From NCBI GenBank assembly GCA_014191855.1, contig BJHF01000002.1, forward strand, positions 62,001 to 126,000: a stretch of DNA of 64,000 bases, written 5' to 3'. The notes beneath the pieces were generated by a model. It was not told where the DNA came from. It did not search any database and saw only the letters and a list, made by a program, of their open reading frames with translations. The position numbers were made by a program, and so were the translations under genes. Of this stretch, positions 49,265 through 53,702 are shown in pieces; positions within the stretch are counted from its first letter, which is position 1, and each line of letters opens with the position of its first letter. This DNA comes from Deltaproteobacteria bacterium (lineage in GTDB: Bacteria > Myxococcota_A > UBA796 > SXON01).

Positions 49265-50566
49265 ATGGCGATTGACGAAGCAGCGCCACAACTCGGCACG
49301 GTGCACGCGCCGTTTGCGCACCGCTTCGGCTACCTTCCGACGGTCGGGAGCCGCGCAGATCGCTTGTGGTGGCGCGTGGATGTCGTGCCGTGCAGTGGCG
49401 CCGCCGACGAGGGTGTGATCGTCACCACCCTCACGCCAAGCGTTCAAGTCGGCATCGACGTGGTACGCGCCCGCGACGCGTACCGGATTTGGCTCGCTGG
49501 AGGGCGCAAGCCCACCGCGGCACCCGCGATCCTCGAGTTGATCCCCTCGGTTGCCGGACGCATGTACCGCGCGGCGCCGGGACCTGCAGAGGTGCTCGCG
49601 TGTGTGCGCGAGACTGCGACGACGGCAGCGCGCCTCGCCGAAGAAATTCGTCGTCATGCGGATCCCCGCCCGCACGTTCTACGCCTCCTCGGCGAACGCC
49701 CCTTCGTCTTCGTCAATGAGCACTTGAACCTCGACAGGCTGCTGCCCCCGGCGCACGGACGTTGCCGATCCGCCGTCGAGGCCGCGAACGCGCGCGCCGA
49801 TGCAGACGCAGAGCGAGGGCCTGAGCGACCGCGAGGCGCGCTGGTGGGGGGACTCCCCCTCCAGGCCGACGTGGCCGTGCTGCACGCGCTCAGCGCCGAG
49901 CCAGAGTCGAAGCATGCGGCCCTGTTCGTCCTCCACGCTTGGCTCAAAGGCGGGGTCAATCCCGTCAAAACGAGCAATTCCCATCCCGACAGCAGCCTCT
50001 CACGGAAACTTCGAGCGGATGTCGTGGACGAGATCGCCCGCGGAGTGGTTGGGCCATCCTGCAGCCAAGCCGCGGACAGCCTGCGCCGCGCTGCGAAGGA
50101 TTGGGCAAACGGCGTGACCCGCCTAACCGAGTCACCCGTCGCGTTTGTTGCTCAGTGGGGCAGCCACGAGAGCCCCCCGCAGGGCTTGGCGGATCCGCAC
50201 ACTCTCGTTGCAGCCTGGCTCCGCACCACCGCTGCCGAGCGCCACCTGCGAGCGCTATCCGGGTACCGATGGCCAGACTGGCGCGTCCTCTCCGTCGCTG
50301 ACTACAAGTTTGAGACCTTTCTACAAAGGCGATTCCGGAGCTTTGTCCGAATCTCCGGCAACGTGAGCGATGCCGACGCCGAGCGCGAGCCTCGGTTGCG
50401 TCGCCTACTATCTGCCGGGTGCCAGATGCGAACCGATGGTGAGTCGGCAATCAACCTTGGGTTATTCATCGACGCCGCCAAGCACCCGGAGCTCGCAGAC
50501 GGGGAACTGAACCTGTGGGGGGCGCTCTTTGACGTGCACGCCGTCGTTCCCCCTGCCTCGCGATAA
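49265..50566 (+). CDS. Unknown protein at the right end of the island
   Basis: A 433-residue protein opening MAIDEAAPQLGTVHAPFAHR. Segments such as DRLWWRVDVVPCSGAADEGV, TATTAARLAEEIRRHADPRP, RPFVFVNEHLNLDRLLPPAH and AAWLRTTAAERHLRALSGYR suggest an alpha/beta soluble protein. No motif, signal peptide or membrane segment is recognised. Base composition is somewhat lower in GC toward its 3' end than in its neighbours. It is divergent from the AlpA-like gene and is the last gene before attR, a typical cargo position. Some island-end genes of this kind are defence effectors; nothing here proves that. Confidence 0.6.
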   Translation: MAIDEAAPQLGTVHAPFAHRFGYLPTVGSRADRLWWRVDVVPCSGAADEGVIVTTLTPSVQVGIDVVRARDAYRIWLAGGRKPTAAPAILELIPSVAGRMYRAAPGPAEVLACVRETATTAARLAEEIRRHADPRPHVLRLLGERPFVFVNEHLNLDRLLPPAHGRCRSAVEAANARADADAERGPERPRGALVGGLPLQADVAVLHALSAEPESKHAALFVLHAWLKGGVNPVKTSNSHPDSSLSRKLRADVVDEIARGVVGPSCSQAADSLRRAAKDWANGVTRLTESPVAFVAQWGSHESPPQGLADPHTLVAAWLRTTAAERHLRALSGYRWPDWRVLSVADYKFETFLQRRFRSFVRISGNVSDADAEREPRLRRLLSAGCQMRTDGESAINLGLFIDAAKHPELADGELNLWGALFDVHAVVPPASR

Positions 50567-50930: not shown

Positions 50931-51527
50931 TCACCCCGCCTCCCCATCCCCTCGCCCCACACCCAACGCATCGGCCATCCGATTGACGTAGTTGAAGAAC
51001 CCGGCGATGGACGTCACCTGAAGCACGCCCCGCTCGTCGAGCCCCACTGCCCGCAGCCCCTCCAGATCGGCCGGGCCCAAAGCCCCCGGCGTACGCGTCA
51101 TCTTCTCAGCGAAGCGCACGATCACGCGCTCCCGCTCGGTCAGCTCAGCGGCCTCCGGATCGCTCCGTACGCTGGCCACAAAAGCGTCATCCCCAGTCAC
51201 GACACGCAGAAACTCTGCGTGAGACTCCAGTCAGTAAAAGCACTCGTTTGCGCGGGAGACGACGACGGCGATCAGCTCTTGCTCCCGACGCGAAAGGGGC
51301 AACTCGGGGTCGAGCATCGCGCGGAGGCCCGCAAACATGTGGAACATCACGTCGGGCAATTGCGCGTGGGAGGCGACGATGCTCTCTCGGGCGAGGGCGA
51401 TCGGCAGGCGACTGTCGGCCCTCGGAGGGCCATACTCCGGCGGATACCCCGCCCGAACCTCGCGAAGGCGGGACAGGTACCGGGCATGCTCCGGGTCACG
51501 GGGGAGGACGGGGCGAATCCAGGTCAT
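50931..51527 (-). CDS. AhpD-like peroxidase-family protein with in-frame UGA (probable selenoprotein)
   Basis: A 198-residue protein if the in-frame TGA at 51233-51231 is read as selenocysteine (residue 99). The sequence runs SRANECFY-U-LESHAEFLRVVTGDD, so UGA stands exactly where AhpD/CMD-type peroxidase-related proteins have the second Cys of CxxC(xx)SH. The frame is open and family-like on both sides: PELPLSRREQELIAVVVSRA before, and RERVIVRFAEKMTRTPGALG, SIAGFFNYVNRMADALGV after. A perfect hairpin follows the UGA at the right distance for a bacterial SECIS. These enzymes reduce peroxides by redox-active thiols or selenol. Without Sec incorporation it would be a pseudogene with a nonsense mutation. 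Confidence 0.8.
51203..51233 (-). promoter_or_regulatory. Candidate bacterial SECIS element
   Basis: On the minus strand TGA (51233-51231) is followed after 9 nt by CACGCAGA-GTT-TCTGCGTG (51221-51203), a perfect 8-bp stem (7 bp if the A-U closing pair opens) with G at the start of the loop. The loop G lies 18 nt after the UGA. Bacterial SECIS hairpins lie immediately downstream of UGA inside the coding region with a G in the first loop positions, so the match is good. Confidence 0.75.
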
Positions 51528-51563: not shown

Positions 51564-53702
51564 ATGTTCTTGCTGCTCGGCGCCGCGTGCATCCTCGACT
51601 ACGCCACGTACCAGGCGTGCCTCGCCGAGCTGACCGACAACGATGGGGACGGCGTAAACGAGGTGGAGGGAGACTGCAACGACGACGATGCGGCGGTGTT
51701 TCCTGGCCAGGAGGAGACGTGCAACGAAGCGGATGACGATTGCGACGGCGGGGTGGACGAAGCGGACGATGTTGTCGGGGCGGAGTGGTACCCGGACAGC
51801 GATGCGGACGGGTTCGGGAGCGGGGAGGCGGTCATCACGTGTGAGCCCCCAACAGGGATGGTCCAAAGCGGTGGAGATTGCGACGACACCGACGACGCGG
51901 CGTTCCCCGGCGCGCCGGAGCGGTGCAACGGCGCAGATGACGACTGTGACGGCGACGCGGACGAGGCGGACGACGTAGAGACCCTGGATTGGTACGCCGA
52001 TCTCGACGGCGACGGTTGGGGCTCCGACAACGTGATCGCGAGCTGCACCGACCCCGGATCGGCTTCGCTGGCGACAGGCGATTGCGACGACGAGGCCGCC
52101 GCCGTTCACCCCGAAGCCACCGAAACGTGCAATGGCGCAGACGACGACTGCAACGGAGCCGTGGACGACGCGCCGGCCGTTACTTGGTACCTCGACCGCG
52201 ACGAGGACGGATATGGCGACGAAGGCACGTCCTACCTTATTTGTGCGCCGCCTCCAGGGTATGTTCGCGACGGCTCCGATTGCGATGACGAAGACGACGC
52301 GCGGCACCCGGGAGCGGAGGACGCCTGCGAGGATGGGGTGGACAACGATTGCGACGGGCTGGACGTAACCTGCAGCCTCCCCTCTGGAGAAAGCACGGGC
52401 GCGGATGCCAGCGCCTCGTTCACGGGCACGGCCGGCGAGGCGTACATGGCCCGCACCGTCGCGGCGGCGGGCGACCTCGATGGGGACGGAAACGACGAAC
52501 TGCTGCTCGCCCGAGGCGGCTTCGACGACTTCACCGGGGAGGTGATCATCCTCGCCGGAGGCGCAGAATTGTACCTCGGCGCGGTGGACACCGACCGGAC
52601 CGGGACGGCCCTTCGCGGTCCGGTCGGCACGTCGGCATTTGGCGTGTCGCTGAGCGCCGGGCAGGACACGGATGGCGACGGCGTGGGCGACATTCTCGTC
52701 GGCAGCCAGGGGGCAAATCACGCGCACCTGTTCGCGGGCGGCGCCCATCTGCTGGCGGGCAACCTTGAGAGTGACGACGCGACGGTCCGGCTGGAGGGTC
52801 CGGCCGACGGCGTGGATTTCGGGCTCGCCGTGGCGCTCGTCGGGGACGTGGACGACGACGGATGGGGGGACTGGCTCGTGGGCGACTACGGCTACCAGGG
52901 CACGGGCGCGGCGTTCCTGTTTTATGGCAATGGGGCCCCTGGCACCCGGAGCGCCAACGACGCCGACGTGGTGACGCTGCTCGGCGAGCGAGCCGACGCC
53001 CAGGCCGGCCAGGAGGTGACGGGGGTCGGCGACTTCGATGGGGATGGGGTGGGGGATTTTTTGGTGGCCGACAACGTGACCACCGGCGGAGAGACCGCTC
53101 GAAACCACGCTTACCTCATGCTCGGCTCGACCAGTCGTTTCGTTTCGGGAGCGTTGGCCGACGCGGATCTGGCCTATGCCGGAATGCCCACCGACAGCGC
53201 GTTCGCCTCGGTATCAGGCCTTGGCGACATCGACGGGGACGGTCGCGACGATTCGGCGCTCTCCGCAGCTGGCACGAACGCGAGCGCGGGCGCGGTGTTC
53301 GTCTTGTTCGGCGACCCAGCCCCCACCGCCGGCGTCGAGATTTCGGACGCGGCGGATGTGACATGGACAGGCGCGGTGGCCGGGGAGGGCCTGGGCGCGT
53401 CCGTAGGAGGACCGGGGGAGGTAACGGGCGACGGCTACCGGGATCTCGCCGCAGCAACCACGCGATCTGGGTCGACGGGAGCCCATATCTACATCCTCGC
53501 CGGCGCCGCCGCGCTCCGAGGAACCTACAGTACCGCCGACGCCTGGGCCGATGTCGCCGGTGGCAACGCCGAGGCGCAGGGAGACGCGATCTCGGGAGCG
53601 TCGGACGTAAACGGCGACGGCAGCGCGGATCTGCTCTTCAGCGCTTGGGATGCGTCGAGCGCCCAGGGGCAGGCTTGGCTCTTCTACGGGGCGACGCCGT
53701 AG
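51564..53702 (+). CDS. MopE-like Asp/Cys-repeat lipoprotein with FG-GAP-like propeller
   Basis: A 712-residue protein with a lipoprotein signal MFLLLGAAC (Cys residue 9). Residues about 25-275 carry about five Asp/Cys units (DCNDDDAAVFPGQEETCNEA then DDDCDGGVDEADD, and so on), each with WYPDSDADGFG-like spacers. From about residue 290 on there are FG-GAP-like beta-propeller repeats: AAGDLDGDGNDELLLARGGF, SAGQDTDGDGVGDILVGSQG, VGDFDGDGVGDFLVADN, GLGDIDGDGRDDSALSAAGT and SDVNGDGSADLLFSAWD. Such surface proteins are abundant in myxobacteria; Ca2+ binding is likely from DxDxDG loops. Divergent from the AhpD-like gene; paralog of the island protein at 5357-7165. Confidence 0.9.
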   Translation: MFLLLGAACILDYATYQACLAELTDNDGDGVNEVEGDCNDDDAAVFPGQEETCNEADDDCDGGVDEADDVVGAEWYPDSDADGFGSGEAVITCEPPTGMVQSGGDCDDTDDAAFPGAPERCNGADDDCDGDADEADDVETLDWYADLDGDGWGSDNVIASCTDPGSASLATGDCDDEAAAVHPEATETCNGADDDCNGAVDDAPAVTWYLDRDEDGYGDEGTSYLICAPPPGYVRDGSDCDDEDDARHPGAEDACEDGVDNDCDGLDVTCSLPSGESTGADASASFTGTAGEAYMARTVAAAGDLDGDGNDELLLARGGFDDFTGEVIILAGGAELYLGAVDTDRTGTALRGPVGTSAFGVSLSAGQDTDGDGVGDILVGSQGANHAHLFAGGAHLLAGNLESDDATVRLEGPADGVDFGLAVALVGDVDDDGWGDWLVGDYGYQGTGAAFLFYGNGAPGTRSANDADVVTLLGERADAQAGQEVTGVGDFDGDGVGDFLVADNVTTGGETARNHAYLMLGSTSRFVSGALADADLAYAGMPTDSAFASVSGLGDIDGDGRDDSALSAAGTNASAGAVFVLFGDPAPTAGVEISDAADVTWTGAVAGEGLGASVGGPGEVTGDGYRDLAAATTRSGSTGAHIYILAGAAALRGTYSTADAWADVAGGNAEAQGDAISGASDVNGDGSADLLFSAWDASSAQGQAWLFYGATP

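What the first reader, a model, noticed from the sequence alone, without database searches (positions are those of the whole stretch)
50931..51527. AhpD-like active-site UGA with a SECIS-like hairpin: probable new selenoprotein
An in-frame TGA replaces exactly the second Cys of the CxxC active site (CFY-U-LESH). The frame is open and family-like on both sides, and a perfect 8-bp hairpin with a G-first loop starts 9 nt after the UGA, the loop G being 18 nt after it. Sec-containing AhpD-like proteins are known in bacteria. A random nonsense mutation landing at this residue with this hairpin is unlikely.
Basis: partly seen in the sequence, partly recalled or inferred. Interest (0 to 1): 0.8.

Follow-up and report, generated by a model that had tools for sequence, protein, structure and literature searches.

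The report
Selenocysteine-containing AhpD-like peroxidase gene
A gene that looks broken by a stop codon almost certainly encodes an intact antioxidant-type enzyme in which that codon is read as selenocysteine at the active site; it is a well-supported but ordinary new member of a selenoprotein family already on record.

Summary
An ORF at 50931-51527 (-) has one internal TGA (51231-51233) at the second active-site Cys of C96-F-Y-U99-LESH103. An 8-bp hairpin with a G-first loop follows (51203-51221, loop G at +18). The selenocysteine reading is strongly supported. The same genome encodes SelA, SelB, a Sec-type SelD and tRNA-Sec(UCA). The TGA is kept at the same codon in 27 of 34 further homologues examined, across the phylum, and the other 7 have Cys. 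The hairpin is conserved with compensatory changes, has low synonymous divergence and is absent from the Cys homologues. Purifying selection is similar on both sides of the TGA. All 30 genomes with the TGA form have SelA; 5 of 9 with only the Cys form lack it. The hairpin alone would not have been convincing: about 4% of all TGAs in this GC-rich window are followed by some bSECIS-like stem of at least 8 bp. The protein belongs to TIGR01926 (peroxidase-related, AhpD-like) and keeps all five AhpD proton-relay positions. Sec-containing AhpD-like proteins (CxxU) have been known since 2005. So this is real, a new member of a known kind, of modest interest. Sec insertion and peroxidase activity are inferred, not shown.

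The parts
50931..51527 (-). AhpD-like peroxidase-related selenoprotein gene, 198 aa with Sec at residue 99
   Evidence: TIGR01926 119.6 bits against a cut-off of 81.8; CMD PF02627 36.5 against 23; dN/dS about 0.1-0.2 against family relatives on both sides of the TGA
51231..51233 (-). In-frame UGA read as selenocysteine (U99), second residue of the CxxU redox pair
   Evidence: TGA at the same codon in 27 of 34 other homologues, Cys in 7
51203..51221 (-). Bacterial SECIS hairpin: 8-bp stem, 3-nt loop GUU, loop G 18 nt after the UGA
   Evidence: 92.5% of cells paired, 3 pairs with compensatory changes, 0/500 shuffles reach the covariation score; meets the bSECIS constraints quoted
51216..51278 (-). 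Codons 84-104 hold the AhpD active-site pattern E84-x11-C96-x-Y98-U99-x3-H103
   Evidence: invariant across the aligned relatives; matches the five proton-relay positions Glu36/Cys48/Tyr50/Cys51/His55 of PA0269
50931..50933 (-). True stop codon (TGA)
   Evidence: the alignment of relatives ends here; the orthologue L020 ends with TAG

Best explanation
This is a functional selenoprotein gene. The ribosome reads UGA codon 99 as selenocysteine because SelB, carrying Sec-tRNA(Sec), binds the hairpin that starts 9 nt downstream. The 198-residue product is an AhpD-fold, peroxidase-related thiol/selenol oxidoreductase (TIGR01926). Its Cys96/Sec99 pair, with Glu84, Tyr98 and His103 as proton relay, probably reduces a peroxide or passes electrons to a peroxiredoxin-type partner, with Sec in the place of the usual second Cys of the CxxC pair. 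Shown by computation: gene, family, TGA conservation, SECIS conservation with covariation, and presence of the machinery. Inferred: actual Sec insertion, peroxidase or adaptor activity, and substrate.
For: The own genome has SelA (460 bits, cut-off 268), SelB (314, cut-off 242), SelD (391, cut-off 125, itself with a TGA in HGGG-U-GCK) and tRNA-Sec with anticodon UCA (66.6 bits). The orthologues G006 (82%), G016 (78%) and G034 (53%) and the wider family keep TGA at this codon: 28 Sec against 7 Cys including this gene. The SECIS stem is conserved with compensatory changes (C-G to G-C, C-G to U-A, A-U to G-C) and lost in the Cys homologues (2-5 of 8 pairs). In the ten SECIS codons dS is 0.14-0.20, against about 0.9-1.4 beyond them; dN is about equal before and after the TGA (0.136 and 0.139 for L019). 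SelD of the same genome has a hairpin of the same geometry, 8/8 pairs with loop GGC. SelA is present in 30 of 30 genomes with the TGA form and in 4 of 9 with only the Cys form (Fisher p = 0.0002). The proton relay is complete. AhpD-fold PDB matches: 2oyo, 6k40, 3c1l, 2pfx, 2prr.
Against: There is no experimental proof of Sec insertion. The fold energy of the region is not exceptional. The machinery genes lie on other contigs of a draft genome in 329 contigs (93% complete, 4% contamination), though SelA is over cut-off in 48 of 58 related genomes. No redox partner gene was recognised next to it. Peroxidase activity of TIGR01926 proteins is not established here. The structure model is of moderate quality (pLDDT 69).
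Confidence: 0.95

Rival explanations
1. Pseudogene or nonsense mutation: the TGA is a real stop and the gene is decaying.
For: A mechanical ORF caller splits it into a 98-aa ORF and an 89-aa ORF.
Against: The same TGA is found across families of the phylum, with purifying selection downstream of it and a covarying SECIS.
Confidence: 0.02
2. Sequencing or assembly error for TGC/TGT.
For: The window comes from a draft genome in 329 contigs.
Against: Independent genomes carry TGA at the same codon, including G338 with only 2 contigs. Cys homologues lack the hairpin.
Confidence: 0.01
3. UGA reassigned genome-wide, or read by a suppressor tRNA as another residue such as Trp.
For: An open frame through a TGA would also be expected under such a code.
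Against: TGA also serves as the normal stop at the end of this gene and of several relatives. A scan of the window found no other TGA readthrough candidate with coding signal on both sides. The residue aligns with Cys, and tRNA-Sec, SelA and SelB are present.
Confidence: 0.01
4. A selenoprotein, but not a peroxidase: an AhpD-fold oxidoreductase with another substrate, as Bmp8, a debrominase of the same fold, shows is possible.
For: Bmp8 (6ohi) is among the fold matches. TIGR01926 is a subfamily named only 'peroxidase-related'. No AhpC-like neighbour was recognised.
Against: All five proton-relay positions of AhpD are present. Sequence similarity is highest to the peroxidase-related structures.
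Confidence: 0.3

Closest known systems
AhpD-like selenoprotein family with CxxU, listed under TIGR01926 in PMC13188914 ('AhpD-like' of the Sargasso Sea survey 2005, COG2128; 'AhpD-like 1' of GOS 2008)
   Same: Same NCBIfam family over the cut-off, same CxxU motif with Sec at the second Cys, bacterial SECIS downstream.
   Different: CFYU-LESH subgroup of this lineage, with an N-terminal stretch of about 60 residues that is not matched by the family profile. The published sequences could not be aligned here.
AhpD-related (seleno)protein NF041238 (AhpD_rel_CFYUT; 'hypothetical protein 1' of the Sargasso Sea)
   Same: CFYU motif; matches the part of the profile around the active site (62.5 bits).
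   Different: Well below the cut-off of 175 and only part of the 357-position profile is matched: not a member.
Cys-containing peroxidase-related proteins of known structure (2oyo, 6k40, 2pfx, 3c1l, 2prr)
   Same: AhpD fold, CxxC at the same place, about 28-40% identity over the aligned part.
   Different: Cys where this has Sec; no SECIS expected.
AhpD of Mycobacterium tuberculosis (1gu9)
   Same: Proton-relay residues at matching spacing, with Tyr98 in the place of His132.
   Different: Distant in sequence and topology; weak fold match.

Membership tests
Bacterial selenoprotein gene | Sec machinery (SelA, SelB, SelD, tRNA-Sec) in the same genome | tested here: met
Bacterial selenoprotein gene | In-frame UGA aligned with a conserved Cys of homologues | tested here: met
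Bacterial selenoprotein gene | bSECIS: 4-16 bp upper stem, 3-9 nt loop, G in the first two loop positions, UGA-to-loop spacing 16-37 nt, MFE <= -7.5 (rule quoted) | tested here: met
   8 bp, loop GUU, 17 nt between the UGA and the loop, -14.4 kcal/mol; covariation
Bacterial selenoprotein gene | Selenium incorporated in the protein | not testable with these tools
   needs 75Se labelling or mass spectrometry
TIGR01926 peroxidase-related enzyme (AhpD-like) | Score over the curated cut-off of 81.8 | tested here: met
   119.6 bits
TIGR01926 peroxidase-related enzyme (AhpD-like) | AhpD fold and CxxC/CxxU with Glu, Tyr and His proton relay | tested here: met
   (model pLDDT 80 or more over most of residues 81-180, low at the N terminus)
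TIGR01926 peroxidase-related enzyme (AhpD-like) | Peroxidase activity | not testable with these tools
   needs the purified protein
NF041238 AhpD_rel_CFYUT | Score over the curated cut-off of 175 | tested here: not met
   62.5 bits

The most novel reading that the evidence does not exclude
In this phylum the AhpD-like family has diversified mainly as selenoproteins, with several deep Sec-only subgroups and at least two SECIS geometries inside one protein family. Some members may be paired with each other or specialised for substrates other than peroxides. Because the lineage includes genomes without SelA whose copies have Cys, it could serve as a natural test of how Sec/Cys exchange and SECIS birth or loss proceed.
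Probability: 0.35. Interest if true: 0.45.

Novelty: new member of a known kind. Interest (0 to 1): 0.27.

Why it matters
A normal gene caller would annotate this gene as two fragments or a pseudogene; it should be annotated as one selenoprotein. It adds a well-supported example, with a covarying SECIS and Cys counterparts in relatives that often lack SelA. It also points to a bacterial lineage in which most genomes carry SelA.

Tried and rejected
Fold-energy tests did not separate the SECIS from background in this GC-rich sequence, so they are not used as evidence. A covariance model of the SECIS found only this site in the own genome; of the next matches (E >= 0.5) five were printed and none showed a convincing TGA-plus-hairpin context. 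The genome-contig scan gave only two close relatives, both already known through the genome search. No functional link to neighbours was found: the divergent gene has MopE and FG-GAP motifs, and 49265-50566 has no Pfam hit. A literature search for Myxococcota selenoproteins returned nothing. Membership in NF041238 was tested and rejected.

Full report
What is there. The minus strand of the window, 51527 to 50931, holds an ORF with an ATG start and one internal TGA at codon 99. The context is C96-F-Y-[TGA]-L-E-S-H103. Nine nucleotides after the TGA an 8-bp hairpin starts, CACGCAGA-GTT-TCTGCGTG, with the loop G at +18.

Is it more than chance? On the hairpin alone, only moderately. Of 1,224 TGA trinucleotides on both strands of the window, 51 (4.2%) are followed by some bSECIS-like stem of at least 8 bp, and this one alone has the exact geometry. 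Random synonymous recoding of the same peptide gives 8/8 pairs in 0.4% of trials. The fold energy is not unusual. The decisive evidence is comparative.

Comparative evidence. (a) Among 35 aligned family members of the phylum, including this one, 28 have TGA at the same codon and 7 have TGC or TGT. The window gene sits in a supported clade (100/98) of six sequences, all TGA. (b) In 20 sequences with this hairpin type, 92.5% of stem cells pair, three pairs show compensatory changes, and no shuffle reaches the covariation score; sliding the partners destroys the signal. The Cys homologues have only 2-5 of the 8 pairs. (c) Against the orthologues L019 and L020, dS is 0.14 in the ten SECIS codons and about 0.9-1.4 beyond them and upstream; dN is nearly the same upstream and downstream of the TGA (0.136 and 0.139; 0.156 and 0.176), so the part after the TGA is translated and selected. 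(d) All 30 genomes with the TGA form, the own genome included, have SelA over the cut-off, while 5 of 9 genomes with only the Cys form lack it (Fisher p = 0.0002). Related genomes are not fully independent, so that p value is only a guide.

Machinery. The genome in which the window lies encodes SelA, SelB, SelD and a tRNA-Sec with anticodon UCA. SelD is itself a selenoprotein gene, HGGG-U-GCK, and its hairpin has the same geometry: 9 nt, 8/8 pairs, loop GGC with the G at +18. The machinery genes are on other contigs of a draft genome (329 contigs, 93% complete, 4% contamination), but 48 of 58 genomes in the relatives set carry SelA over the cut-off, so contamination is an unlikely source.

Protein family and mechanism. 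The product scores over the cut-off of TIGR01926, peroxidase-related enzyme (119.6 against 81.8), and of the Pfam CMD family. Its best solved relatives are 2oyo, 6k40, 2pfx, 3c1l and 2prr, confirmed by a fold comparison of a moderate-quality model. E84, C96, Y98, U99 and H103 match in spacing the proton relay Glu36, Cys48, Tyr50, Cys51 and His55 described for PA0269, and the corresponding set of M. tuberculosis AhpD (PMC3141380). The likely mechanism is that of an AhpD-type peroxidase or adaptor with a Cys/Sec pair; the order of the catalytic steps and the substrate are inferred. A non-peroxide substrate remains possible: the debrominase Bmp8 has the same fold.

Known or new? Sec-containing AhpD-like proteins with CxxU have been reported since the Sargasso Sea survey (PMC1088965), were abundant in the GOS survey (PMC2398784), and are listed under TIGR01926 in a 2026 review (PMC13188914). 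The hairpin meets that review's bSECIS rules. This is therefore a new gene of a known selenoprotein family. It is not a member of the neighbouring family NF041238, whose cut-off it misses by far.

Neighbourhood. The gene stands alone, divergent from a large MopE/FG-GAP repeat protein. That arrangement is kept in the congeneric genome G006. Only 2 of 11 genomes of the genus, the own one included, carry the gene, so it is patchily distributed.

Noticed in passing
L035:1318-1908 (+), next to L020: In genome G016 a second AhpD-like gene with an in-frame TGA (CEFUTGAH) lies a few hundred bases downstream of the orthologue. Similar motifs occur in L027 (CEFURGAH), L025 (CHFUREGH) and L061 (CEFULGAH); L035 and L025 score just below the TIGR01926 cut-off.
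   Followed up: partly
L053, L055, L056, L058, L062, site of the TGA: A second SECIS geometry in the same protein family: stem around GACCTC/GAGGTC with a 6-nt loop CGTGCT, loop G about 26 nt after the TGA.
   Followed up: partly
L010, minus strand: SelD of the window's genome is itself a Sec protein (HGGG-U-GCK) with a hairpin of the same geometry as the finding.
   Followed up: yes
relatives of G000: SelA is over the cut-off in 48 of 58 genomes of the order-level set, although Sec-rich bacteria are described as mostly anaerobic; the lifestyle of this lineage was not examined.
   Followed up: no
window 51564-53702 (+): Divergent neighbour: a 712-aa protein with four MopE-type putative metal-binding motifs and FG-GAP repeats, syntenic in G006.
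   Followed up: no
L039 (CALQBK020000004.1): The public record is titled 'Bifidobacterium breve', but its gene is 78% identical to this one and its contig matches G016:C4, which genome search places in the same family as the window: the title looks mislabelled.
   Followed up: no
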